This document shows, one piece after another, positions 3,962 to 37,952 of a DNA stretch of 37,952 bases; position 1 is the first letter of the stretch, and each line of letters starts with the position of its first letter. Made by a program: the position numbers and the translations under genes. Location of the stretch: IMG/VR virus record IMGVR_UViG_3300030451_001778, positions 1-37,952 of that record; one strand, given 5' to 3'. The stretch comes from a virus. The notes beneath the pieces are model-generated. The model did not search any database. It saw only the letters and a program-made list of their open reading frames with translations, and was not told where the DNA came from.

Positions 3962-4930
3962 ATGGCAGGAATTACAGGGCAAGGTACAACCTTTAACTTA
4001 CCCAATTACGTGGGTGACTTATTTGAGTTGACACCTTCAGATACACCCTTCTTATCACTAATTGGTGGACTAAGTGGTGGTGAAAGTACAACTTCACCAA
4101 CATTTCAATGGCAGGCATTTGACCTTAGAAGCGCAGGACAAAACGTTGCGCTAGAAGGTGCAAGTGCGCCTACTGCTGAAGCTAGAGTAAGAGCTAACTA
4201 TTTCAATATATGTCAAATACATCAAGAAGTAGTAGAAGTTTCATATTCTAAATTAGCCGCAATTGGTGCATTTAGTGGGGAAAACATACAGGGAACAAAC
4301 CCTGTTACAAACGAAATGGATTTTCAACTAGAGCAAATGCTGAAGCAAATTGCTAGAGATGCAGAATATTCATTTATTCAAGGCGCATTTCAAGAGCCTT
4401 CAGATAATACATCTGAAAGACAAACTCGTGGAATATTAGCCGCGGCAGGAAATCATGTTTACATGGACGATGGTGGCGATGGTACAGGAACAGACCAAGC
4501 ACTTACCGAAGATGCTGTATTAGACTTAATGCAAGCAATTTGGGAAGATGGTGGTATTCAAGTATCAGAAACAGCTACTCTTATGGCAAACGCTAACGTC
4601 AAAAGACAATTAACAAAGTTATTTGTTACTGACAAGAACTACAGAGAAGAAAGCAGAAACGTTGCAGGTGTAAACGTACAAACTATCGAAACTGATTTCG
4701 GTAGGGTAAACGTTGTTCTTAACAGACACATGCCTACAACTGAACTAGCAGTCGTATCTGCTGAGTTATGCGTGCCTGTATTTATGAACGTGCCCGACAA
4801 AGGCTTCTTATTTACAGAGCCACTAGCTAAAGATGGTGCTAGTGACAAGTTTCAAATCTATGGCGAAATTGGATTAAAATATGGTAATCCAAATGCGCAT
4901 GGAAAGATTACAGACATAGCCGCAATATAA
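3962..4930 (+). CDS. major capsid protein (SU10-like, HK97 fold)
   Basis: A protein of 322 residues. The N-terminal GxxFNLPNYVGDLFELTPSDTPFLSLIGG, then TFQWQAFDLR, and the central NEMDFQLEQMLKQIARDAEYSFIQGAFQ (E-loop/spine region) followed by TRGILAA match the SU10 major capsid family (DUF5309). The C-terminal half carries LMANANVKRQLTKLF and the P-domain-like ETDFGRVNVVLNRHMP. The ribosome site is AGAAGGAG. It forms the icosahedral shell. It ends in an efficient terminator at 4950, as expected for a gene that must be transcribed more than its neighbours. Confidence 0.92.
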   Translation: MAGITGQGTTFNLPNYVGDLFELTPSDTPFLSLIGGLSGGESTTSPTFQWQAFDLRSAGQNVALEGASAPTAEARVRANYFNICQIHQEVVEVSYSKLAAIGAFSGENIQGTNPVTNEMDFQLEQMLKQIARDAEYSFIQGAFQEPSDNTSERQTRGILAAAGNHVYMDDGGDGTGTDQALTEDAVLDLMQAIWEDGGIQVSETATLMANANVKRQLTKLFVTDKNYREESRNVAGVNVQTIETDFGRVNVVLNRHMPTTELAVVSAELCVPVFMNVPDKGFLFTEPLAKDGASDKFQIYGEIGLKYGNPNAHGKITDIAAI

Positions 4931-14602: not shown

Positions 14603-15132
14603 GTAATTTAAGATTAATTAATGAAACTACTACAACAGCAGGCGTACAAACAGTTAATATTACTGATGTATTTTCTAGTGATTTTGATATATATAAAATT
14701 GTAGGTGCAGTTAATTTAGGTAACAATTCAACTGCAACAGGTTTTAATTTAAGGTTTATAAATGCTAGTGGAAGTGTAGTTTCAACAGATTATGATTATG
14801 CACAACAAGCTATGAAAAGCGAAGCAAGTTTTGGTGAAAACAAAAGTGCAAGTGAAACTAGATTATGGAACGTATTTGGTGTATTAGATGATAGTGGACA
14901 ATCAGCAGGAAATGTAGCTTATGTGTTTAATCCTTTTAGTTCTAGCTCTTACACTTTTTGTTTGTGGCAATCAGCAGGTACGCCAAGTGGTAATTTAAGA
15001 GCATATAAAGGTATTGGTGTTTTACATCAAACAAGTGTTATTACAGGTTTTCAAGCAGAACTAAATGAAAGTGTAGGGGAATTTGCAAGTGGTGGAAAAA
15101 TTAAAACTTATGGATTGAGAGTAGATAGCTAA
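14599..15132 (+). CDS. tail-fibre/receptor-binding-type protein, copy B1
   Basis: A protein of 177 residues, starting in a four-base ATGA overlap. Beta-rich; FDIYKIVGAVNL near residue 35, then RFINASGSVVSTDYDYA, FGENKSASETRLWNVFG and SSSSYTFCLW. It is clearly similar to the gene at 16303 (RLIDASGNVIS, YGEERGTGETSLQDIWG). It lacks the N-terminal YGY module of its upstream neighbour. Probably a fibre subunit or tip domain. Confidence 0.65.
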   Translation: MSNLRLINETTTTAGVQTVNITDVFSSDFDIYKIVGAVNLGNNSTATGFNLRFINASGSVVSTDYDYAQQAMKSEASFGENKSASETRLWNVFGVLDDSGQSAGNVAYVFNPFSSSSYTFCLWQSAGTPSGNLRAYKGIGVLHQTSVITGFQAELNESVGEFASGGKIKTYGLRVDS

Positions 15133-15647
15133 TGGTAGGTAAATTAATACAAGTAGCAACAGAAACAGTAACAAGTGCAGTAAGTAGTGTTGAATTAACA
15201 GGCATAGACAGTGATGATGTTTATATGTTAACTATGAATAATGTTCAACCTGTCAATGATAGTGGATATTTATTAATGAGAGTAACTGAGAGTGGAACAG
15301 CTAATACAACTTCTAATTATGACCAAGCATATAAAAATCTAAGAGCTGATAGTTCATTTAGCAATAGTAATTACCAAAACTTCTCTTATATTTACGTAAC
15401 CAATAATACTCTTGGAACACAAACAAGTGAAAAACTAAATGGTATAAAGTATATTTTTAATGCAAATAATAGTTCTGAATATACATTTATGACTAATGAA
15501 ATATCTTCAGTTAGCAATACATCAAATTTATGGGGAAATCAAGGTGGGGAAGTGTTTACATCTACTAGCGCAGTTGATGGTGTACATTTTTTTATGGATA
15601 ATGGCAACATAGCAAGTGGAACATTTACATTGTATAAGGTGGTGTAA
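15132..15647 (+). CDS. tail-fibre/receptor-binding-type protein, copy C1
   Basis: A protein of 171 residues; its ATG overlaps the previous stop. Shared features with the gene at 16833: VSSVELTGIDS near residues 17-27, then RVTESGTANTTSNYD, a FNANNSSEYTFMT strand, VFTSTSAVDGVHFF and an ending GTFTLYKVV. It is the third member of a three-gene cassette repeated directly after it. Role inferred as a receptor-contact subunit. Confidence 0.65.
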   Translation: MVGKLIQVATETVTSAVSSVELTGIDSDDVYMLTMNNVQPVNDSGYLLMRVTESGTANTTSNYDQAYKNLRADSSFSNSNYQNFSYIYVTNNTLGTQTSEKLNGIKYIFNANNSSEYTFMTNEISSVSNTSNLWGNQGGEVFTSTSAVDGVHFFMDNGNIASGTFTLYKVV

Positions 15648-15649
15648 TT

Positions 15650-16303
15650 ATGAGTAAAAATAACAAATATGGGTATGTAGGTACAGATGTTCCTGAACAA
15701 AGTTTTCAAAGTAATTCAGGCAAATTTGACCCTGCCGAAATAAATGAATTAGTAGCAGACAATAAATGGACACAGTATGGACAATTAGAATTAATTGAAA
15801 CTAAAACAGTTACTTCTAGTTCATTAATTACTTTTGACGATATTAAATCAGATATATACAACGTACATTTTATGACTATAAATAATCTTAAAACAGATAA
15901 AAGTAGTGGTAATGTGCAATTAGGTATAAGACTTGGCGAAAGTGGAACTATGGAAACAGGTAGTGTTTATAAGTGGGCAGTTGAGAGATTTCAAGGTGGT
16001 AGTTTTTCAAACCAATATGTAGCAGGGTATAGCAGAATTGCTATTGGGTGGTATTCAATTGATAATGGCACTTATAATTGTGAAAACGCTTATGTAAATT
16101 TTCATAATCTAGGTGATGCTGAAAAATATTCTCACATAAATACTCATAGTACAGGGTATAACTATGAAGACCAACAGGCTATGGGTTTTGGTGGTGGCTT
16201 ATTACCACAAGCAAGTTTTGTTGACATGATACAAATTAGTGATTACAACACTTTAGATAATTTAAGTGGTGTTATTAGTTTGTATGGAATAAGAGGTTAT
16301 TAA
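15650..16303 (+). CDS. tail-fibre/receptor-binding-type protein, copy A2
   Basis: A protein of 217 residues, two bases after the previous stop, with AAGGTGG upstream. It shares the YGYxG...NSGxF N-terminal module with the gene at 13979, then diverges in the middle (SDIYNVHFMTINNLK, IRLGESGTMETGSVYKWAVERF). It ends LSGVISLYGIRGY. The conserved N-terminus with a diverged body is what one expects when the attachment part is kept and the receptor-facing part changes. Confidence 0.65.
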   Translation: MSKNNKYGYVGTDVPEQSFQSNSGKFDPAEINELVADNKWTQYGQLELIETKTVTSSSLITFDDIKSDIYNVHFMTINNLKTDKSSGNVQLGIRLGESGTMETGSVYKWAVERFQGGSFSNQYVAGYSRIAIGWYSIDNGTYNCENAYVNFHNLGDAEKYSHINTHSTGYNYEDQQAMGFGGGLLPQASFVDMIQISDYNTLDNLSGVISLYGIRGY

Positions 16304-16836
16304 TGGCTTCTAACTTAGAATTTATAGTAAGACACAACCTATATGTAGTGACTTCTGCGTGGAATATTGGTAACACAAATGATAAAATATTTACTGATAA
16401 ATATGACGTATATCTTGCAACTTTAACTATGGACGGGTCAACAGGTAATTCTGAAACAATACAAAGCAGACTTATTGATGCAAGTGGTAATGTTATATCT
16501 GATGCAGAATATGATAATGCAAGCTATCAACAATTTGCACATGCAAGTTATGGTGAAGAACGAGGAACAGGCGAAACTTCATTACAAGATATTTGGGGAA
16601 CATACGACTACAGACCTGAAAGTTTAAATGCAAGTGTTTATATATATAATCCTGCCGATAGTACGTCATATACTTATTTACAAGGTAATGCAAGTAATTC
16701 TTTTAATGGTAATTTCAAAGCACATAAATCTATTTCAGTTCACAAAAGCGCAGAAGAAATAATTGGTATTCAATTTTTTGTAACTAACACTGATTATTTT
16801 ACAAATGCACAATTTACTTTGTATGGGGTTAAATGA
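16303..16836 (+). CDS. tail-fibre/receptor-binding-type protein, copy B2
   Basis: A protein of 177 residues, the same length as copy B1 and alignable across most of it: SRLIDASGNVIS, then YGEERGTGETSLQDIWG, ASVYIYNPADSTSYTYL, then an ending NAQFTLYGVK. The start overlaps the previous stop. The N-terminal 25 residues differ from copy B1. Probable fibre subunit. Confidence 0.65.
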   Translation: MASNLEFIVRHNLYVVTSAWNIGNTNDKIFTDKYDVYLATLTMDGSTGNSETIQSRLIDASGNVISDAEYDNASYQQFAHASYGEERGTGETSLQDIWGTYDYRPESLNASVYIYNPADSTSYTYLQGNASNSFNGNFKAHKSISVHKSAEEIIGIQFFVTNTDYFTNAQFTLYGVK

Positions 16837-17357
16837 TGAGTGGTAGCTTAATTAAAATAGATGAGGAAATAATTTCAACAGCAGTAAGTTCTGTAACTCT
16901 TACGGGTATTGACAGCACTTATGATGTGTATAAACTTGTAATTAATAATGTACACCCTTCTGTTGCAGATAGTAATGTAGGCATTAGGGTTACAGAAAGT
17001 GGTACTGCAAATTCAACTTCTAATTATGATATATCAAACGTTTTTGTAAGAACTAATACAGCTTTTGGTAAAACAGGTCTTACTGACCAAGATAAATTTG
17101 GATTTGGGTCTTACATTGGTACAGGTGATACAGGCGATAGAACACAGGGTGTGTTTTACATCTTTAATGCAAATGACAGTAGTGAATATACCTTTATAAC
17201 TTTTGAAAAATTACAAACTGCTGAAAGTGATGAATTAACAGGCAATATGGGTGGTGGTGTTTTTACTTCTGCAAGTACAGTTGATGGTGTGCATATATTT
17301 ATAAATACAGGAAATATGGAAACAGGCACTTTTACATTATATGGTTTAAATAAATAA
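16833..17357 (+). CDS. tail-fibre/receptor-binding-type protein, copy C2
   Basis: A protein of 174 residues with two in-frame ATGs (16833 and 16836). It is the closest of the paralogue pairs to its partner at 15132: AVSSVTLTGIDS, RVTESGTANSTSNYD, IFNANDSSEYTFITFE, VFTSASTVDGVHIFI and GTFTLYGLNK. It ends the duplicated cassette. Greater similarity of C1 and C2 suggests that this member is under tighter constraint. Confidence 0.65.
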   Translation: MMSGSLIKIDEEIISTAVSSVTLTGIDSTYDVYKLVINNVHPSVADSNVGIRVTESGTANSTSNYDISNVFVRTNTAFGKTGLTDQDKFGFGSYIGTGDTGDRTQGVFYIFNANDSSEYTFITFEKLQTAESDELTGNMGGGVFTSASTVDGVHIFINTGNMETGTFTLYGLNK

Positions 17358-23190: not shown

Positions 23191-23534
23191 CATATAGTGA
23201 GTACGAGTTAGACGATTTAGATGATGAGTTAGTTTATCCTTATGGCAACGCACCTGCACCAAAAGACAGAGCTGTAAGACGTAAATTACTAAGAGAAGCA
23301 TTAGTTAAAATTGCAAAAAACAAATGCGAGTGGGCAGAGTGTAGCGATATAGGTACTGACATGGCACACATAACTGCAAGTGGTATGGGTGGCGCTATTA
23401 GTAAAGACAGATTAGATAACGTAGCTTTGTTATGTCATCATCATCACATGTGTTTTGATTATCAAATGTCTGCAAAGCAAAGACAGTTTGCATTGTCAGA
23501 GTTACTAAGGGGGTACGTACTTGGAAATAGATAA
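23187..23534 (+). CDS. HNH endonuclease
   Basis: A protein of 115 residues with a four-base overlap to the previous gene. A CEWAEC pair (Cys47, Cys52) is followed by DMAHI (His61), SKDRLDNVALLC (Asn78) and CHHHHMC (His87; Cys83/Cys89), giving an intact HNH metal site with a structural zinc. Length is that of a free-standing HNH nuclease. Its position among replication genes rather than next to terminase suggests a role in recombination or processing, or that it is a homing relic. Confidence 0.75.
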   Translation: MTYSEYELDDLDDELVYPYGNAPAPKDRAVRRKLLREALVKIAKNKCEWAECSDIGTDMAHITASGMGGAISKDRLDNVALLCHHHHMCFDYQMSAKQRQFALSELLRGYVLGNR

Positions 23535-24579
23535 CAGATTAGAAATAATAAAACGTTTTGATTTAGAACAAAGTGACCATTACAAAGAGCCAATTGCTAT
23601 CCCTGAATTTTATGAAGGTATAAATAGAATATTGTTAGTTGGTAGTAGTGGTAGTGGTAAAAGCACAATATTAAATGCACTTGGTAGTGTCAGTAAATTT
23701 TCAGAATATACAACAAAGCCAATTTGTAATTACTTCCCTAGCGCTGACCTTGCACAAAAATATTTAAAAGACGCAGGTTTAAATAGTATGCCTACATGGA
23801 TTAGACCATTAAATGAAGTCAGTGATGGTGAACGATTTAGAGCAGAGCTAGCTATCAACATGTATTACAACAGAATTGTTGTTATAGATGAATTTACAAG
23901 TGTGCTTGACAGAGAAACAGCAAAGTCAATTTGTTACACAATTAATAAAGGCGTGTCTAAAAATAAAAAATTAATATTAGCTACAGGACACGAAGATGTA
24001 ATTAAATGGTTAGATGGTTTTTACATTTATAATACTGACACAAATACATTTATGCGTAATCAATACGAATACGAAGCGCCAACTTTAGATATTGAACGTG
24101 TTAAATATGATACGTGGCATTGGTTTGCTAAACATCATTACCTTATGGGTAACATTAACAAAAGTAGTCACTGTTATGTAACGTATGTAAATAATCGCAT
24201 GGCAGGTTTTATTGCAGTTAATAACCAACTTGGTAGAGATACACCAAACAGTAAACGAGAACATCGATTAGTTGTCTTACCACAATATCAAGGACGTGGT
24301 CTTGGTAGTTTGTTTTCAAATACAATTGCTTACTTGTATCACATGCAAGGCTACAGATATTTTAGTAAAACAAGCAACGTGTTGTTAGGCGAGTACAGAC
24401 AAAAACATGATTTATGGAAACCAACAACAACAAACTTACGTCAACGTGTTCAGAATAGCCCTAGTGGTTTTGACAATTGGAACGTAAATACAACAAGAAT
24501 TAGTTATTCACACGAGTTTATAGGCAAAAACATTGACAAATTTGACGATATATTAGCTACTAATAACTTGCATACATAG
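23521..24579 (+). CDS. ABC-type ATPase fused to GNAT acetyltransferase
   Basis: A protein of 352 residues with a TTG start behind AAGGGGG. The N-terminal ABC domain has Walker A GSSGSGKST (41-49), signature VSDGE (100-104, LSGGQ-like), Walker B IVVIDEF (119-125), D-loop SVLD and His157 of the switch. Only about 50 residues separate Walker A from the signature, so it is a reduced ABC, with no membrane domain. The C-terminal half is a GNAT domain with LVVLPQYQGRGLGS (250-263), the acetyl-CoA motif. COG2401 describes this fusion. Substrate unknown. Confidence 0.85.
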   Translation: MEIDNRLEIIKRFDLEQSDHYKEPIAIPEFYEGINRILLVGSSGSGKSTILNALGSVSKFSEYTTKPICNYFPSADLAQKYLKDAGLNSMPTWIRPLNEVSDGERFRAELAINMYYNRIVVIDEFTSVLDRETAKSICYTINKGVSKNKKLILATGHEDVIKWLDGFYIYNTDTNTFMRNQYEYEAPTLDIERVKYDTWHWFAKHHYLMGNINKSSHCYVTYVNNRMAGFIAVNNQLGRDTPNSKREHRLVVLPQYQGRGLGSLFSNTIAYLYHMQGYRYFSKTSNVLLGEYRQKHDLWKPTTTNLRQRVQNSPSGFDNWNVNTTRISYSHEFIGKNIDKFDDILATNNLHT

Positions 24580-27648: not shown

Positions 27649-28242
27649 ATGGAACAAGTAAGAATTTTGCGATTATCTTTATTTCAGTTTGATGAAGAAA
27701 ACCCAAAAGAACATAACATTGGCGAATTAATATTATCAATTAAAAGACATGGCTTTATAGAGCTTCCTGTAGTAAATGAAGAAACAGGTTTATTAGTAGC
27801 AGGACATGGCAGGGTAGAAGCATTACAACGTATGGTTATAGACCAAGAACAACCACCTTTATACATTGTCACAGAAGAAGATACAGGTGAGTGGTTAGTA
27901 CCTTACATCTCAATTAAATTTAAAACTGACCACGAAGCAAAGGCGTATATGATAGCAAGCAACGCATTAACAATTGATGGTGGCTATAACGAACACAAGT
28001 TATTAGATATGTTGATGGACGTAAACGCACAAACAAATAATTTATTAGGTACAGGATTTGATAGTCAAGACATAATGGACATGTTACACGCAAACGACAA
28101 AGGTCTTATCTTTGATGACGACTTTGGCAAACAAACACATAGTGTTAGCGTAGAAGCTGATAGCATTGAACATGCAAAAAAGATTAAAGAAGACTTAGAA
28201 GAATTAGGTTACACATGTCAATTGAAGACGAAAACAACTTAG
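27649..28242 (+). CDS. ParB-like nuclease-domain protein
   Basis: A protein of 197 residues. The N-terminal half is a ParB/sulfiredoxin-type domain: NPKEHNIGELILSIKRHGFIELPVVNEETGLLVAGHGRVEALQRM (about 18-62), with the GHGR motif at 52-55. The second part lacks the ParB HTH. Such phage proteins usually lie beside a DNA methylase or terminase; here the terminase follows and no methylase is seen. It may bind DNA at the packaging region or act as a nucleotide-dependent switch. Start: the leaderless ATG 6 bases after TATAAT. Confidence 0.85.
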   Translation: MEQVRILRLSLFQFDEENPKEHNIGELILSIKRHGFIELPVVNEETGLLVAGHGRVEALQRMVIDQEQPPLYIVTEEDTGEWLVPYISIKFKTDHEAKAYMIASNALTIDGGYNEHKLLDMLMDVNAQTNNLLGTGFDSQDIMDMLHANDKGLIFDDDFGKQTHSVSVEADSIEHAKKIKEDLEELGYTCQLKTKTT

Positions 28243-30314: not shown

Positions 30315-31799
30315 ATGAAACAAATGCCCGCAAACGGGTCAGAGTACCCACCTAAAGACCATAAACATATACAAAGGGTTTACGCAGAACACAGTGCATG
30401 GCACAGTGGCGACCCTGCAACTTTACGCAAGACGTATGCTGACGTACCACAAGACTATAGACCAAGACGTTATATGTTTTGGACACGTAAAGGTGCAACA
30501 GAACTACAAACAGAACGTCACCAAGTTCATGTGCCGTTAGCGGGTGACATAGCACAAACATCAGCAGATTTATTATTTAGTGAGCCACCAAAGTTTATGA
30601 TACCTGAAATGGAAACTGAAGCATCTGCAAAAAATACGCAAGAAAACTTAGATGCACTGTTGGCACAGTGTGGTTTTAAAAACAAATTACTAGAAGCAGG
30701 CGAATTGTGCGCTTCTATGGGTGGTGTGTTTTTAAGACTTGTATGGGATTTAGATTATATGAAATACCCAAATATACAGATAGTTAATCCTGATAAAGCA
30801 TTTGCGACCTTTATGTATGGTCACTTAGTATCAGTAGCTTATGTAACAGAATATGAACAAGATGGAAGACAAGGTTTTTATAGGCATATCGAGTTACATG
30901 GCATGGGCAAGATAGAGCATGCTTTATACTATGGCACACAAAACAACTTTGGCGAAAGAGTTGCATTAACTGCTATACCTGAAACAGCAGGTTTAGTCGA
31001 AGAAATACAATTACCTTTTGACACATTGGCTAGTGTCTATGTACCTAATCAAAGACCATTAAGAAGATTACGTGGATTGGATTATGGAAGGTCAGATTTT
31101 GATGGCATTGAAGGTATCATGGACGCAATAGACGAAGCATACACTTCATGGCTTCGTGACATACGTTTAGGTAAATCAAGAATTATTGTACCTACAGAAT
31201 ATTTAGAGAGAAGGGGTCGTGGACGTGGTAGTGCATTTGATGTAGATGCAGAAGTATTTACAGCATTAGAGATAGACCCTAATACAGAGAATAAAGGAAT
31301 ACAACCTGTACAGTTTGAGATACGTGACCAACAACACAAAACAACAATATTAGAACTTATTGATAGAGCTGTTACAGGCGCAGGTTATAGCCCACAATCT
31401 TTTGGTCTTGGAATAGAAGGACGTGCAGAGAGTGGCACAGCTTTAAAATTAAGAGAGCGTAAGTCATTTATTACACAAGCTAAAAAACAAAGATATTGGA
31501 CGCAACCATTAGAAGACATATTAGAAAAACTTATGATATTACATAATGAGATATTTAGTGCAGGTTACGAAGTCTTTACACCTACAGTTGTGTGGCAAGA
31601 TAGCGTAGCGCCTGACCCAAGAGAGAGTGCAACAGTAATAGAAACATTACATAGAGCGCAATCTGCATCATTAGAAACAAAAGTTAGACTTCTTCACCCT
31701 GACTTTACAGAAGACGAAATAGAAGCAGAAGTAGAAAAAATAGCTACAAACTATAATTTAGCTGACACAGGAATTGAAGTAATCGAAGAACTAGACTGA
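30315..31799 (+). CDS. portal protein (SPP1 gp6-like)
   Basis: A protein of 494 residues. It shows the typical portal sequence pattern: TDRHQVHVPLAGDIAQTSADLLFSEPP (about 75-100), then a stem region, GVFLRLVWDLD, and the crown/tunnel helices near PQSFGLGIEGRAESGTALKLRERKSFI (about 355-380, the signature of SPP1-type portals). It forms the dodecameric ring at the unique capsid vertex through which DNA is packaged. The giant minor-capsid gene follows after four bases. Confidence 0.92.
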   Translation: MKQMPANGSEYPPKDHKHIQRVYAEHSAWHSGDPATLRKTYADVPQDYRPRRYMFWTRKGATELQTERHQVHVPLAGDIAQTSADLLFSEPPKFMIPEMETEASAKNTQENLDALLAQCGFKNKLLEAGELCASMGGVFLRLVWDLDYMKYPNIQIVNPDKAFATFMYGHLVSVAYVTEYEQDGRQGFYRHIELHGMGKIEHALYYGTQNNFGERVALTAIPETAGLVEEIQLPFDTLASVYVPNQRPLRRLRGLDYGRSDFDGIEGIMDAIDEAYTSWLRDIRLGKSRIIVPTEYLERRGRGRGSAFDVDAEVFTALEIDPNTENKGIQPVQFEIRDQQHKTTILELIDRAVTGAGYSPQSFGLGIEGRAESGTALKLRERKSFITQAKKQRYWTQPLEDILEKLMILHNEIFSAGYEVFTPTVVWQDSVAPDPRESATVIETLHRAQSASLETKVRLLHPDFTEDEIEAEVEKIATNYNLADTGIEVIEELD

Positions 31800-31803
31800 T
31801 ACT

Positions 31804-34800
31804 ATGTCAGTTGAAGACACAGTACAGCAGGAATTAATCGCTGAAGAAAAAGCTGAAGTATTTTTATCGATAGGTGAATATCTTAACCAAGCAATAATTG
31901 ACTTAATTTACGATGATGACATCTATGATGCTGAACTAGCAAATGGTGATGCTAGTAATTGGACTTACAATAAGCTAAAAACAATAGAAGGTTTAATTGC
32001 ATCTGCTGAAAAAGCAGGTAATGATTTACTCAAATTAGCAAGACCTACATTTGAAGACGTAGTTAATATTGCTTACAATCACAGCGCAGAAGTAGCAACA
32101 GCAGAGTTAATAGCAGGTGGACAAACAGTCAATTTAGGCGCAGGTTGGGAAGGTATAAGCGAATTTGCAGTTGATGCTTTAGTTGATGGTTTAGTTAACA
32201 GGTGGGAAAAACGAGTTGACAAGTTAGCAATAACATCATCAGTGCAAAACGAAGCAACAGATTATATAGAGCGTATAGCTAGTCAAGTTGTAGGTGGTCG
32301 TGCATTAAACGATGCACAAGCAGAAGCAGTCAGTGAATTAATAGATAAAGGCATACCTATTTTTAAAGATAGTAAAGGTAGGAAGTGGGCTATTGAGAAT
32401 TATGCACCTATGTATGTTAGAACTGCATCGCAACAAGCAAGAGTACAAGGCGCATTAGATACTTATGAAGCAAGTGGTAATCATTTAGTTTATATATCTG
32501 ATAGCCCTGCTGAGTGTAAATATTGTAGGAAATACGAAGGTAAAATATATAGAACTACAGATAATGTTGCTGATTTGCCTAAATCAAAACAAGATGACCC
32601 ACCACCACATTTAAACACTGCTAAAAACGCAAAACCTGTAGGTCTGTTTCACCCTAACTGTACGCATCAGGCGTTGTTATACATAGAAGGTCTTACAGAT
32701 TTAGATAAACAACCTGACCCTAAAGATGCAGAGCGTGAAAAAAATAGAAGCAATCTAAAACGTGTACAAAAAAATAAACGTAGGGCTAGAGCAAAAATGA
32801 AGGAATACAAACGTAAAGGTCAAACAGCATATTACAACAACGCTAAAGCAAATTGGAATAAATGGTTGTCACAAGAAAAACAGCTTATGTCTTACTTTGA
32901 ACGTCAAGGTTTAGGTTGGATAGGTGGCGAAGACAGGTCAATACTATTAGCAGAGATGCTAGGCGTTGACCCTAAAGAGATAGCTAAGTTAAAAAACAAT
33001 CCATTAGCATTAGCAAAACTTGCACCAAAGACTGCGTTCCCAACAAAGCTAGTAACACCAAAAGCTAGAGATGCAATAGCAGACATAATAAGACCACCTG
33101 ATATAAGCAACTTACGACTAGACGATATAGAGCAGTTATCACGTCAAGGTCAACTAGAATTTAAAAAAAGTGGTTTAAAAAACATAGGTGACTTTGTTAT
33201 TACAGACTTTACCTACTTAAACGAGAGCATACAAAAACAAATTAACTTCCAATACTATAAATATTTTGAAAGTGATTATGGCGTATTTAAGTATGCAGAA
33301 AACTTAAATCTTATGCACGCACCACCTAAGTTACCAAGTTCGATAAACAGTAAAGTCAAGTTTGACGCATTTGTTAATGAAGGTGGCATCGTATCTAACA
33401 AATATGCGTATTGGCAGTGGCATGAAGGTGACCTTGCACCAACTAAATATTGGGCAGATGATAGAAAAGCTAACTTATGGGATAAGATAGTTGACAGGAA
33501 ACTTGCAGAAGAAGTATCAGCAGGCGCAAAAACAAACAGAAAACAATATGTCAGTGGTGGTCTGCCGTCGTCGGGTAAGAGTAGGACTATATCAGGTAAA
33601 GACCCAAACAAAGCTGTTAAAACTATTGACTTAGCAGAATATGTAACATTAAACAGTGACGATATGAAAACTATGTTGTTAATTGAAGAATATGGCACAA
33701 CAGCAGATATAGCAATACATGATGAAATAAGCGACCTGTTTATTAACAGCGATACAAATGGTGTAAACACAATAATTAAGTTAGATAGTGCAGGCAATAT
33801 CATAGAAGGTCAAAGCGAAGTGTGGGCTAAATTAAAGAAATCACACCCTGATGTTTTCGATACATTATTTGCTGAATATAAAAATGGACAAAAAATTGGT
33901 TACAAAGAAACAACAAGATTTAACGAGAAGTTTTTAACAGAGATAAAAGAAAGTATTGCAGAACGAGTAGTTGTAGTTCGTACAACAGATGTTGTATCAG
34001 AGATAATAGGATTTGAAGGCGCAAACATTGTACACAGTGAGAGTTCAGCTTTACTTGCTTATGCACAAGACAGAGCAGGTGAACGTGGACTTAACATAGT
34101 ACATGACGTAACGCTAGGGTCAGAACGACCACTTGAAAAAATAGATGAGTTAATTAAAACACATGGTTACATGGCAACAGAAGGTACGTATATTGTGTAC
34201 GAAGCTGAACAGGCTAAAAAAGGTGTTGTACAAAGATATGCAGAAGGCAACTTCCAAAACCTGACATCTAAAGTAGCACGTGGACGTGGTGGTCGATACG
34301 TTTCAACAGGCGTAATTGACCAAGCTATGAAATTAATAGAAACTGACGCAGTAAACGAAACATTAGAAATACTAGGAAGACCTGCAATAAATGATAATGA
34401 GATTTATATGGCTAGGTTACTTAAATCAGGCAACGTTGACTTTAGAGATAATGGTTTTCAAATAATAGATAGAACTTTAATTGATGAGAATACAGGCTAT
34501 CCTGTTTCACGTAAAATATTATTGCAACGTGGCAAAGATGGTATTCAAGGCATAAAAAAAATAAACCCATCAACTAAAAATGCAGGACTTGATTTATTAG
34601 ACATTGTACAAGAAGATACAAGGTCAAGACAAAGACCACGTATAACAAAAGTTAAAGTTAAATCACAGCTACCTAAAGCTAAATATGAAAAATCAGGGTT
34701 TAAAGGTATTTTAGATAAATACAAGACAGACTTTAGAGTGTTAAAAAACAAAGATGGTTATATGACAAAAATACAAATGTACTTTGATAATTTAAGTGGA

Positions 34801-37800
34801 AGTAAATCTTACACAACAACTTTAAGTACAACGTTTAATGTAGAAAACGCATTTGGTGAAAAATTTGACCTAAATGTAAGTGATGGCATGATTAAATTTG
34901 GTAATAGCAGAAGAAAATTTTATAGCTTATTGTCAGAAACAATTGACGATTTTAGATTAAATGAATTTGTAGAAGAAGCAAATAAACCTATTGGTTTGTC
35001 AAAAACACGTACAGCTAAAGATTATATTGTTAAAAGCATTGACGAAGCACAGATAATTATTAACAGTGAAACTGATAATTTGTTACGTAATCATCACTTG
35101 TATATTGTGCCTACTATAGAAGATGCAAATTTTTTATTTAATTCAGGAATAGCACCTAGTTTAATTTATGTTGGTGACAGCAAAGTGTTTGAAAAACACC
35201 TAAACATAGTAACTAACAATACACACAAAAGATTACGTAATTCAGGTTATCCAAATTTTAGAAACATATTTTTTGGTGATAATTTACCACAAAGATATAG
35301 CCCAAACTTTACAGATGGTTTTACTGTATCAAACCTTGAAAACATACCTGCAAAAATTGGTGAAGCAGACTTAGTTCATTACATAGCTAATACAGGTAAA
35401 ACTGATGACTTTGATGCAATATCACATGAAAATTTATTTAGACCACAATTGTCAGAAGAATTTGAAAAAACTGTTTATAGACAATTAGAAGTTATGCAAA
35501 AACAACTAGCTATTAAAGGTGTAGAACATGGCGCTATAAAAGTTGCCTATAGTATTGATGCTATTGCATTTTACAAAAGCGTATTAGATATACCTAAAGA
35601 TGTAAGTTTTATAGATGAGTTGCTAGCAGGCAATATCGACCCATACGAAATGTATCTAGCAGGTCAACAGTTTAAAAATGGACAAGCATCTGTTGCTAGA
35701 TTTACAGATGAGAGTGCAGGTATGAACAGAGCTGTTGTTAAATTAAAAAAACTATTAGGTATGAACTATCAAACTACCCATAACTTATATTCAGCTACAC
35801 AACAAATTAAAGAAGCATCATTAGGTAATGTTTTAGTTCCACAAACAAGTACAGTTGCAAAAGACGATGTCAAAGACATATTTGAGTTAACTAAACAGTC
35901 TTTAACAAACGAGAGATATATTGACGCAGAAACAGGGCAATCATTTTTATATAGTGTTGTTGGAAAACACATAAACGAAATTGATGTTGATGGTGATTTA
36001 AACACTACACGAACATATAAAGTTGCACAAAAGGTTACAGAAGGTAAACAAGCAAGACACGTAACAGACTTCTTAAACCTTAAAACAAAAAGAGTAGTAA
36101 TGACTGTTGATGAATTTATAGAACAACAAAACCATATAAAAATTGATACAGATGGCGATGTAGTAACCAAAAAAGCAAAGGTTAAGGGAAATACTAAAAA
36201 ACAATTTTTTACAGGAAGGTCAGGTAACCCAAGAGAGAACAAAAGATTAATTGGTGCAGTAGGTAACACACAAGGTAATAATCAGTGGGTAAAAAACGTT
36301 GAGAAAGATACAATTAATAAACTTCAAATTGATAAACCAACGTACATAAACCAACTTGTTAACAATACGACAGACGACTTTTATTTAATAGAAAATCTAA
36401 AACAAATGAACGGCGATGATTTAATAGAAGTTGTGTTAGTTGACGAAGCAGACTTTAACAAAAATTTTAGAGATGCTACTGACAATCCATTTGCAGATGA
36501 CATTACACAATTTCTTGAAGCCCAAATAGATGATACAACAGCAAGGTCAGGTAAATCGTATAACACAATAGCACAAATTGGTTGGGCAGATGACCTAGAC
36601 AAATACATTTATGGACAAGGAAACAGAGAAGGTAGAAGAATTACTACATTACGTGGTGACAACCTAAGACTTAACACAAACATACCAAATGTAAGTCAAA
36701 CAGATTTTGATGGATTACATAAGGTAGAAGTATCATCTGAAAAAGCATTAGATACATTAGCGTTACAACAAAAAGTAGATAGTCACGATGATTTTTTATT
36801 ACAAAACAGCGCAAAAACAACATCAATAGATAGTAATGAAACTATAAACAAAAGAGTATATAAGTTTGTAAAGCATGAAGGCGTTGAATTTGGTACGACA
36901 CAAGCAACATCAACTAAATCAAATGTAAAAGGTAAAAAAGCGTTTTTAAATATAATCGAAGTTCCTAAAGAGCCAAACGTTAAAACAATTTATCACACTG
37001 TAGAAATAGATATAGATGATTTAAAACAAGATATAAGAGATGGCATGTTTAGCGTAACTAAAAACGATTTACATTTATATCAAGATGGTGGTGATGTAAC
37101 AGATGTTTTGTTTGCTAGAGATATTGAAGAATTAAAGACTGTAAAGGAAATACGTAAAGTTATACCACAAGATGTTATGGACACAACAGAATTAGGCGAG
37201 TTACTATTTTCTGTTAATGAAGAAAGCTATTATGGCGACACAGCAACACAGCGTGCTAAAAAAGGTTTAGAACTAGAGAGCATGTTGCAATTTAGCGAAG
37301 ACATGACTTTACGAGATATGGTAGAAATACGTTTAAATCGTAATACTGATTACACACAACATGTTATTAAAGCAAAACAAGATGGAAGTGGTGTTAATTT
37401 TGTAGGTAAAAATTATAATCGTGGTGTTGTAAAGACCCAAGACCCATTAGTGCAACAGTTGATAGAAGAAGCAACTTTAGATTACGACCCTGCTGACATG
37501 GGAACAAGACAAGTCGATGCAAACAGAATATTTAAAGATAGACTAATAGAAAAAGCTGTTGACAAAGGTTTAGTAAGTAATGAGCTAAAAAAAGCAGTTG
37601 ACATAGTAGATACAGTGTTTGCAAAAGTAGGTGGTGTAAACAATCTAAATCTAACACAAGCAGAATTTACAGATTTACTTGAACAGATAGAAGACATTAA
37701 AGATGAAACTTTAGCAGATAAAATAAAAATTATTGATGGTAAAGAAATATTAGAATTTCAATTATCTGACAGCGTAACAGAACAGATAAGTCAACTTATT

Positions 37801-37952
37801 GACCATAACGAAATAGCACCTGAATTATTTGATTATGACGAACAAGTTTACAGGGTTGTTATAGATGCAGGCGAAGATATAAAACCACCTTCACACCACA
37901 CACGTATGATAGAAACTTTTATTGCAACAGATAATACAACAAGAGCAGTGGG
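31804..37952 (+). CDS. giant minor capsid polyvalent protein with zeta-toxin-like kinase (runs off the edge)
   Basis: At least 2,049 residues. Residues about 1-300 are a phage minor capsid 2-type domain, with CKYC (238-241) and HPNCTH (283-288) as its metal-like signature. Residues about 580-850 read as a zeta-toxin-type P-loop kinase: GLPSSGKS (586-593), SDDMK, HSESS (744-748), IVHDVT (765-770) and GRGGRYV. The rest shows no clear fold to me. Such multi-domain, virion-carried proteins are called polyvalent proteins. The gene likely continues into 2-169. Confidence 0.85.
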   Translation, partial: MSVEDTVQQELIAEEKAEVFLSIGEYLNQAIIDLIYDDDIYDAELANGDASNWTYNKLKTIEGLIASAEKAGNDLLKLARPTFEDVVNIAYNHSAEVATAELIAGGQTVNLGAGWEGISEFAVDALVDGLVNRWEKRVDKLAITSSVQNEATDYIERIASQVVGGRALNDAQAEAVSELIDKGIPIFKDSKGRKWAIENYAPMYVRTASQQARVQGALDTYEASGNHLVYISDSPAECKYCRKYEGKIYRTTDNVADLPKSKQDDPPPHLNTAKNAKPVGLFHPNCTHQALLYIEGLTDLDKQPDPKDAEREKNRSNLKRVQKNKRRARAKMKEYKRKGQTAYYNNAKANWNKWLSQEKQLMSYFERQGLGWIGGEDRSILLAEMLGVDPKEIAKLKNNPLALAKLAPKTAFPTKLVTPKARDAIADIIRPPDISNLRLDDIEQLSRQGQLEFKKSGLKNIGDFVITDFTYLNESIQKQINFQYYKYFESDYGVFKYAENLNLMHAPPKLPSSINSKVKFDAFVNEGGIVSNKYAYWQWHEGDLAPTKYWADDRKANLWDKIVDRKLAEEVSAGAKTNRKQYVSGGLPSSGKSRTISGKDPNKAVKTIDLAEYVTLNSDDMKTMLLIEEYGTTADIAIHDEISDLFINSDTNGVNTIIKLDSAGNIIEGQSEVWAKLKKSHPDVFDTLFAEYKNGQKIGYKETTRFNEKFLTEIKESIAERVVVVRTTDVVSEIIGFEGANIVHSESSALLAYAQDRAGERGLNIVHDVTLGSERPLEKIDELIKTHGYMATEGTYIVYEAEQAKKGVVQRYAEGNFQNLTSKVARGRGGRYVSTGVIDQAMKLIETDAVNETLEILGRPAINDNEIYMARLLKSGNVDFRDNGFQIIDRTLIDENTGYPVSRKILLQRGKDGIQGIKKINPSTKNAGLDLLDIVQEDTRSRQRPRITKVKVKSQLPKAKYEKSGFKGILDKYKTDFRVLKNKDGYMTKIQMYFDNLSGSKSYTTTLSTTFNVENAFGEKFDLNVSDGMIKFGNSRRKFYSLLSETIDDFRLNEFVEEANKPIGLSKTRTAKDYIVKSIDEAQIIINSETDNLLRNHHLYIVPTIEDANFLFNSGIAPSLIYVGDSKVFEKHLNIVTNNTHKRLRNSGYPNFRNIFFGDNLPQRYSPNFTDGFTVSNLENIPAKIGEADLVHYIANTGKTDDFDAISHENLFRPQLSEEFEKTVYRQLEVMQKQLAIKGVEHGAIKVAYSIDAIAFYKSVLDIPKDVSFIDELLAGNIDPYEMYLAGQQFKNGQASVARFTDESAGMNRAVVKLKKLLGMNYQTTHNLYSATQQIKEASLGNVLVPQTSTVAKDDVKDIFELTKQSLTNERYIDAETGQSFLYSVVGKHINEIDVDGDLNTTRTYKVAQKVTEGKQARHVTDFLNLKTKRVVMTVDEFIEQQNHIKIDTDGDVVTKKAKVKGNTKKQFFTGRSGNPRENKRLIGAVGNTQGNNQWVKNVEKDTINKLQIDKPTYINQLVNNTTDDFYLIENLKQMNGDDLIEVVLVDEADFNKNFRDATDNPFADDITQFLEAQIDDTTARSGKSYNTIAQIGWADDLDKYIYGQGNREGRRITTLRGDNLRLNTNIPNVSQTDFDGLHKVEVSSEKALDTLALQQKVDSHDDFLLQNSAKTTSIDSNETINKRVYKFVKHEGVEFGTTQATSTKSNVKGKKAFLNIIEVPKEPNVKTIYHTVEIDIDDLKQDIRDGMFSVTKNDLHLYQDGGDVTDVLFARDIEELKTVKEIRKVIPQDVMDTTELGELLFSVNEESYYGDTATQRAKKGLELESMLQFSEDMTLRDMVEIRLNRNTDYTQHVIKAKQDGSGVNFVGKNYNRGVVKTQDPLVQQLIEEATLDYDPADMGTRQVDANRIFKDRLIEKAVDKGLVSNELKKAVDIVDTVFAKVGGVNNLNLTQAEFTDLLEQIEDIKDETLADKIKIIDGKEILEFQLSDSVTEQISQLIDHNEIAPELFDYDEQVYRVVIDAGEDIKPPSHHTRMIETFIATDNTTRAV

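What the first reader, a model, noticed from the sequence alone, without database searches (positions are those of the whole stretch)
33541..34370. Zeta-toxin-like kinase embedded in a structural capsid protein
Inside the minor capsid gene there is a P-loop (GLPSSGKS), a SDDMK segment, HSESS, IVHDVT and GRGGRYV in the order of zeta-toxin kinases. Zeta toxins phosphorylate UDP-activated amino sugars and poison cell-wall synthesis. Carried in the virion, it may be delivered with the DNA and act on the host at entry, on rival phages, or through another nucleotide-sugar substrate. No antitoxin (epsilon) gene is visible. It is not shown to be toxic.
Basis: partly seen in the sequence, partly recalled or inferred. 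Interest (0 to 1): 0.8.

Follow-up and report, generated by a model that had tools for sequence, protein, structure and literature searches.

The report
Zeta-like kinase within phage head protein
A little-known phage carries, inside a protein that forms part of its head, a well-preserved enzyme domain related to bacterial zeta toxins; the phage probably injects it into the bacterium with its DNA, this kind of fusion was first reported in 2017, and the molecule the enzyme acts on is unknown and may not be the cell-wall sugar.

Summary
The ORF from 31804 is a MuF/SPP1-gp7-type minor capsid protein (PF06152, E 3.6e-31) containing a Zeta_toxin domain (PF06414, E 7.6e-11). The predicted fold matches zeta toxin best (Z 11.9). 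All 30 related phage genes long enough to tell carry the domain at the same place; 16 of these were found through terminase or portal and so are unbiased. The catalytic residues (P-loop Lys, N-x-D, D/T of HDVT, two Arg) are invariant, and the domain is under stronger purifying selection (dN/dS 0.05) than the capsid part (0.07) or the tail (0.25-0.32). MuF-zeta fusions were published by Iyer et al. 2017. The UDP-GlcNAc signature GTxR is not met (VT[LM]G), so 'phosphorylates amino sugars' does not follow. Lineage-wide fixation, a mid-protein position and absence of an identifiable antitoxin argue against a toxin-antitoxin or polymorphic-toxin cassette. The best reading is an injected polyvalent-protein effector kinase acting on a host nucleotide-type metabolite early in infection. 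Most relatives add an ADP-ribosyltransferase-like C-terminus. Virion packaging, kinase activity, substrate and host are all untested. New member of a known kind.

The parts
31804..37952 (+). MuF-zeta polyvalent minor capsid gene (5' 2049 codons; the remaining ~650 codons lie outside the window)
   Evidence: full length 2700 aa in L002; junction of window ends with L003
31948..32829 (+). MuF / Phage_min_cap2 (SPP1 gp7-like) virion domain, residues 49-342
   Evidence: PF06152 E 3.6e-31; PHROG minor head protein 1e-37; TIGR01641 weak
33460..34443 (+). zeta-like kinase domain, about residues 553-880
   Evidence: PF06414; fold match to zeta toxin; conserved in all relatives
33556..33582 (+). P-loop GGLPSSGKS (Walker A; Lys592 equivalent of zeta Lys46)
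   Evidence: 25/25 distinct homologues keep GGLPSSGK[ST] (also invariant in the unbiased set)
33652..33669 (+). N-x-D-x-[FM]-K; Asp619 = predicted catalytic base (zeta Asp67)
   Evidence: Asp and Lys 25/25; aligned with the N-x-DDFK motif of a plasmid zeta-family protein
34033..34050 (+). H-x-E-S-S motif helix
   Evidence: H, E, S, S 22/22; shared with Arthrobacter plasmid zeta-family proteins
34096..34122 (+). IVHDVTLGS: Asp768 ~ zeta Glu116, Thr770 ~ Thr118, Gly772 in place of Arg120 (GTxR motif absent)
   Evidence: D, V, T, G 22/22; profile alignment; GTxR definition
34234..34254 (+). RY...NF; Arg811 ~ zeta Arg158 (predicted ATP/catalytic Arg)
   Evidence: R and Y 22/22; residue role from PMC6356619; equivalence by position
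34285..34302 (+). RGGRYV; Arg831 ~ zeta Arg171 (predicted ATP-phosphate Arg)
   Evidence: R, G, G, R, Y 22/22; equivalence by position and by the GGRWVP motif of plasmid zeta-family proteins
30315..31799 (+). portal protein (SPP1 gp6-like), upstream neighbour
   Evidence: PF05133 E 2.1e-18; 37-39% to Streptomyces phage portals
29015..30235 (+). terminase large subunit
   Evidence: 49% to terminases of Streptomyces phages; 75-81% across the relatives
3962..4930 (+). major capsid protein (SU10 type)
   Evidence: PF17236 E 1.8e-91

Best explanation
This is a phage polyvalent protein. The N-terminal MuF part places it in the head near the portal; the zeta-like P-loop kinase domain behind it is released into the host with the DNA and phosphorylates a small host metabolite, probably a nucleotide-type molecule, in the first minutes of infection to favour the phage. 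Shown here by computation: the MuF assignment, the zeta-like fold, intact ATP/catalytic residues, strong purifying selection, fixation in a lineage of phages, and a swappable C-terminal tail. Inferred: presence in the virion (from MuF homology and gene position), delivery into the cell, kinase activity. Guess: the substrate. The UDP-GlcNAc recognition motif is absent, so cell-wall poisoning as in zeta/PezT is not the default.
For: MuF and Zeta_toxin domains in one intact ORF, full length in L002. Portal-MuF-capsid order as in Streptomyces phages. Fold: zeta toxins Z 11.3-11.9, AvrRxo1 Z 8.9-9.3, polynucleotide kinases under 8. Every MuF gene of this clade that reaches the position has the domain, 30/30, including the 16 found only by terminase/portal similarity. 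Invariant catalytic residues. dN/dS zeta 0.049 against MuF 0.071, linker 0.117, C-terminus 0.25-0.32. Most relatives add a C-terminal ART-like domain (motifs; the full-length weak fold matches are mostly ADP-ribosyltransferase-fold enzymes), i.e. several effector-like activities in one polypeptide. MuF-zeta fusions and the injection idea: PMC5512222.
Against: No virion proteomics and no assay. Foldseek E is only 2e-3 with TM about 0.35-0.46, and the model has mean pLDDT 71.8 with its C-terminal arginine region (model residues 260-295) under 50. The ART-like reading of the tail rests on weak matches (Z 4-6) and no significant Pfam hit. The clade was found in no GTDB genome, so the host is unknown. 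The domain might act inside the producing cell late in infection rather than after injection.
Confidence: 0.6

Rival explanations
1. Classic zeta mechanism: the injected kinase phosphorylates UDP-GlcNAc (or UDP-MurNAc), weakening the wall to ease DNA entry or late lysis, as proposed for MuF-zeta fusions by Iyer et al. 2017.
For: Family and fold match zeta toxins best. Catalytic Asp and Thr118 equivalents invariant. ng-zeta1 shows that UDP-sugar kinases of this family can use a different set of contacts. Published proposal.
Against: GTxR motif replaced by VT[LM]G and the Glu100 position variable (motif defined). The profile of this clade finds plasmid zeta-family proteins that also lack the Arg (DGTLG) but not the two canonical zeta proteins tested.
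Confidence: 0.17
2. MuF polymorphic toxin: a toxin used by a lysogen or phage against competing bacteria, with an immunity gene next door.
For: MuF is a recognised polymorphic-toxin carrier (PMC5576092). A small ORF follows the gene in relatives.
Against: The zeta domain is mid-protein and fixed in 30/30 relatives rather than a swapped C-terminal module. Small ORFs also follow MuF in Streptomyces phages that lack zeta. No lysogeny gene in the ORFs scanned.
Confidence: 0.08
3. A specific form of the best explanation: an anti-defence or metabolic kinase acting on NAD or another adenine nucleotide, AvrRxo1-like, or on nucleic-acid ends, polynucleotide-kinase-like.
For: Second-best folds are AvrRxo1, an NAD 3'-kinase that also keeps the ATP site but lacks the UDP-GlcNAc motif, Z 8.9-9.3, and polynucleotide kinases Z 7.4-7.9. 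A BFVD viral protein named anti-CBASS Acb1 also matches the zeta-like model.
Against: Fold ranking cannot tell substrate; no NAD-binding residues could be tested.
Confidence: 0.3
4. Structural relic: the domain is only a spacer in the head protein and has no catalytic role.
For: It sits in a structural protein; the phage is uncultivated and no activity is known.
Against: Invariant P-loop, Asp, Thr and Arg residues over about 40% identity and the lowest dN/dS of the protein.
Confidence: 0.05

Closest known systems
MuF-zeta fusions among phage polyvalent proteins (Iyer et al. 2017, PMC5512222)
   Same: Zeta-toxin-like kinase fused to a MuF head domain; predicted to be injected with phage DNA.
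   Different: Here the domain is followed over a lineage (30/30 genes), with substrate-motif analysis showing no GTxR, and a tail that varies between nothing, ~450 aa (ART-like) and ~1800 aa. The paper's text reports no substrate test.
Epsilon/zeta and PezAT toxins (1gvn, 3q8x, 2p5t)
   Same: Fold (Z 11.3-11.9), P-loop Lys, catalytic Asp, acidic Mg/ATP residue (Asp for Glu), Thr118, two Arg by position.
   Different: No GTxR motif, Glu100 position not conserved, long insertion after the catalytic Asp, no recognised epsilon antitoxin, fused to a capsid protein, no sequence-level hit to PDB zeta chains.
Zeta-toxin-family proteins of Arthrobacter plasmids (e.g. WP_274249820.1)
   Same: Closest named sequence relatives found: NxDDFK, HxESS, D-x-TLG, GGR[WY]V motifs; profile E 1.7e-12, hhalign probability 98%.
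   Different: Free-standing plasmid proteins of about 310-340 aa, no MuF part; function untested as far as found.
AvrRxo1 NAD 3'-kinase (PMC5087710)
   Same: Zeta-like kinase that keeps the ATP site but not the UDP-GlcNAc site; second in fold ranking.
   Different: A type III effector of plant pathogens; no sequence match found here; NAD use not testable here.
MuF polymorphic toxins (Jamet et al. 2017, PMC5576092)
   Same: MuF N-terminal domain with an enzymatic extension.
   Different: Those are C-terminal, variable and followed by putative immunity genes; zeta/kinase is not mentioned in that survey's text.

Membership tests
MuF / SPP1 gp7-like minor capsid proteins | Sequence match to the family profile | tested here: met
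   PF06152 E 3.6e-31; PHROG minor head 1e-37
MuF / SPP1 gp7-like minor capsid proteins | Gene next to terminase and portal | tested here: met
   terminase 29015, portal 30315, this gene 31804
MuF / SPP1 gp7-like minor capsid proteins | Present in the virion | not testable with these tools
   needs virion mass spectrometry
Pfam Zeta_toxin (zeta-like kinases, broad sense) | Profile match above the curated cut-off | tested here: met
   42.3 bits against 22.3; 11/11 relatives match, best E 4.5e-15
Pfam Zeta_toxin (zeta-like kinases, broad sense) | Zeta phosphotransferase fold | tested here: met
   zeta toxins rank first, Z 11.9, 205 residues, rmsd 3.4; model confidence moderate
Pfam Zeta_toxin (zeta-like kinases, broad sense) | P-loop Lys, catalytic Asp, acidic ATP/Mg residue, two Arg | tested here: met
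   invariant in 22-25 distinct homologues; Glu116 is Asp here; Arg equivalence by motif position
Epsilon/zeta (PezAT) UDP-GlcNAc kinases | GTxR UDP-GlcNAc-binding motif and Glu100 | tested here: not met
   VT[LM]G in all relatives; Glu100 position A/K/T (motif)
Epsilon/zeta (PezAT) UDP-GlcNAc kinases | Adjacent epsilon/PezA antitoxin gene | tested here: inconclusive
   no adjacent gene recognised as antitoxin by inspection of downstream ORFs; no epsilon profile was run and the immediate 3' side is outside the window
Epsilon/zeta (PezAT) UDP-GlcNAc kinases | ATP-dependent UDP-GlcNAc phosphorylation | not testable with these tools
   needs an enzyme assay
Polyvalent proteins (Iyer 2017) | Several disparate domains in one protein of an invasive element, coded with virion genes | tested here: met
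   MuF + zeta; an ART-like third domain in relatives is suggestive only
Polyvalent proteins (Iyer 2017) | Delivered into the host with the DNA | not testable with these tools
   inference from MuF
MuF polymorphic toxins (Jamet 2017) | Variable C-terminal toxin module | tested here: not met
   domain is mid-protein and present in 30/30 relatives
MuF polymorphic toxins (Jamet 2017) | Dedicated immunity ORF downstream | tested here: inconclusive
   a small ORF follows, but also in Streptomyces phages without zeta

The most novel reading that the evidence does not exclude
A lineage-fixed, virion-borne zeta-like kinase that does not use UDP-sugars but phosphorylates NAD, another nucleotide or a defence signal at DNA entry, working together with an ADP-ribosyltransferase-like domain in the same head protein: an injected two-enzyme anti-defence or takeover device.
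Probability: 0.25. Interest if true: 0.65.

Novelty: new member of a known kind. Interest (0 to 1): 0.38.

Why it matters
It is a clean, conserved example of an enzyme built into a phage head protein, with catalytic residues that give an obvious mutant test. It shows that the zeta domain in MuF proteins can be a fixed part of a lineage, not an occasional toxin cassette, and that the usual label 'cell-wall toxin' is not safe for it. If the substrate proved to be a nucleotide such as NAD or a defence signal, it would be an injected counter-defence enzyme.

Tried and rejected
(1) Chance motif or minus-strand ORF (33276-33803): rejected by Pfam, fold and dN/dS on the + frame. (2) tblastn of the zeta domain against cultured phages: no match; plasmids: only weak Arthrobacter hits at E 0.08-0.2, later confirmed by profile. 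(3) Two scans of GTDB genomes, with the zeta alignment and the terminase alignment: no relative, so no host or prophage was found. (4) Sequence search of PDB with the domain and its alignment: no zeta hit; the fold comparison was needed. (5) Canonical zeta proteins from a Bacillus and a Lactiplantibacillus plasmid are not found by the clade's profile at E<10; the global hhalign to them is weak (probability 57%) and misplaces the region after the P-loop, so only the motif around GTxR was used from it. The query that fetched them was a fragment recalled from memory, confirmed by 100% matches to annotated zeta toxins. (6) C-terminal region after zeta in the window's own protein: no Pfam or PHROG hit and unrelated to the tails of the other relatives. 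(7) Literature: no paper found that tests a MuF-zeta protein; one text match for zeta toxin + MuF + phage, not read, besides Iyer 2017.

Full report
OBSERVATION. The + strand ORF starting at 31804 is open to the window's end and reads 2049 residues. Residues 49-342 match Phage_min_cap2 (PF06152, E 3.6e-31) and residues 740-846 match Zeta_toxin (PF06414, E 5.9e-9 in the whole protein, 7.6e-11 in the excised domain). The upstream genes are the portal (PF05133) and the terminase large subunit. A near-identical IMG/VR contig (L002, 98% over the domain) shows the whole gene: 2700 codons. Comparing L003 with the window shows that the window is a linear cut of a longer genome: L003 position 17621 joins window 37947 and L003 20721 joins window 1, leaving about 3.1 kb missing. 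The last ~650 codons lie in that gap.

FOLD. An 11-member alignment (A1, about 40% identity to the window) gave a model with mean pLDDT 71.8, pTM 0.72. Foldseek against PDB puts zeta toxin first (3q8x, 1gvn, E 2e-3 to 4e-3, probability 1.00), then AvrRxo1 and PezT. VIA-align 2 gives Z 11.9 (205 residues, rmsd 3.4) for 3q8x, 11.8 for 1gvn, 11.3 for PezT, 8.9-9.3 for AvrRxo1, 7.4-7.9 for polynucleotide kinases. The best viral match is a 'Zeta toxin domain containing protein' of an uncultured phage.

CONSERVATION AND DISTRIBUTION. Searches with portal and terminase, which do not select for zeta, found related phage contigs. In these every MuF gene long enough to reach the position, 16 distinct including the window, carries the domain. 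With the loci found by the zeta alignment itself it is 30 of 30. Invariant residues: GGLPSSGK[ST], N-x-D-x-[FM]-K, H-x-E-S-S, D-V-T-[LM]-G, RY...N, RGGRY. Loci were chosen by two of these motifs, so the unbiased statement is. Between the window and L002, dN/dS is 0.049 in zeta, 0.071 in MuF, 0.117 in the linker, 0.25-0.32 in the C-terminal part. The kinase domain is the best-kept part of the protein. No relative was found in cultured phages or in GTDB genomes. Terminase, portal and MuF are closest to phages of Streptomyces, Microbacterium and Gordonia, which hints at an actinobacterial host, but this is not shown. In three such cultured phages (two of Streptomyces, one of Gordonia) the zeta profile finds nothing.

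ARCHITECTURE. After the zeta domain the protein ends soon in some relatives (864-879 aa), continues for about 450 residues in most (about 1300 aa), and for about 1800 residues in the window and L002, with no similarity between the last two types. The 450-residue tail has the motifs RGLSD ... YGxGTYTD ... A..YA ... G.VVQ. Its model (pLDDT 79) has only weak matches, but those that span most of it are mainly ADP-ribosyltransferase-fold enzymes (Z 3.8-5.9), topped by a cyanophage pre-ejectosome protein (Z 6.3). I regard 'ART-like' as likely and unproven.

SUBSTRATE. Zeta toxin needs Lys46, Asp67, Glu116, Arg158 and Arg171 for activity (PMC6356619), and binds UDP-GlcNAc through Asp67, Glu100, Thr118, Arg120, Thr128 (PMC3062530); GTxR is the recognised UDP-GlcNAc motif (PMC6362051). 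Aligned with canonical zeta proteins from Bacillus and Lactiplantibacillus plasmids (fetched), YNLVIEGTGRT matches LNIVHDVTLGS. The ATP/catalytic set is kept (Glu116 as Asp), Thr118 is kept, Arg120 is an invariant Gly and the Glu100 position varies. The nearest named relatives are zeta-family proteins of Arthrobacter plasmids, which share NxDDFK, HxESS, DGTLG and GGRWV (profile E 1.7e-12). Atypical members without GTxR are known: M. tuberculosis Rv0366c and AvrRxo1, which phosphorylates NAD. So 'zeta-like kinase' is well supported and 'UDP-amino-sugar kinase' is not.

MECHANISM. Most likely: MuF anchors the protein in the head, it enters the cell with the DNA, and the kinase modifies a nucleotide-type host metabolite early in infection. 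Steps shown: domain identity, intact active site, selection, fixation. Steps inferred: packaging, delivery, activity. Open: substrate. No antitoxin is needed under this reading, since a late gene is made shortly before lysis (inference). I found no integrase or repressor in the ORFs scanned, but not every ORF was scanned.

KNOWN OR NEW. Iyer et al. 2017 state that the zeta-toxin-like kinase is fused to MuF domains in phages and suggest that it weakens the wall for injection. The architecture is thus published. What is added here is the lineage-wide fixation, the stronger constraint than on the capsid part, the lack of GTxR, and the variable tail with an ART-like module. I file it as a new member of a known kind.

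Noticed in passing
window 1 and 37952: The window is a linear cut of a longer, apparently circular or permuted genome: both ends map 3.1 kb apart on the near-identical contig L003.
   Followed up: yes
L013:13064-14125 and equivalents in L025, L026, L030, L031, L037, L039, L043-L047, L049, L054, L057: C-terminal ~350 aa of the ~1300-aa relatives looks ADP-ribosyltransferase-like (RGLSD, YGxGTYTD, A..YA motifs; weak full-length ART-fold matches).
   Followed up: partly
L002:11300-11700 (residues about 2320-2440 of the 2700-aa protein, outside the window): By eye GSLVSTS ... EGEYEYIVP resembles the STS and ExE motifs of ADP-ribosyltransferases, but the usual Arg is not evident and Pfam finds nothing.
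   Followed up: no
window 23521-24576: One ORF joins an ABC/SMC-like P-loop ATPase half and a GNAT acetyltransferase half.
   Followed up: no
window 27649-28242: ParB-like protein just upstream of the terminase small subunit.
   Followed up: no
window 15132-17357: Two separate ORFs (15132-15647, 16833-17357) hit the same unknown PHROG 14820, suggesting a duplicated gene family.
   Followed up: no
BFVD entry A0A6J5LTH6: An uncultured-phage protein of 1134 aa named anti-CBASS Acb1 matches the zeta-like model, suggesting a zeta-like plus Acb1 fusion elsewhere.
   Followed up: no
L062:2072-5080: The Arthrobacter plasmid zeta-family gene lies a few genes from a RES-family NAD+ phosphorylase gene.
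   Followed up: no
PDB 9k3a chain B: A cyanophage A4 pre-ejectosome protein is the top (weak, Z 6.3) fold match of the ART-like tail, hinting at such domains in other ejected proteins.
   Followed up: no
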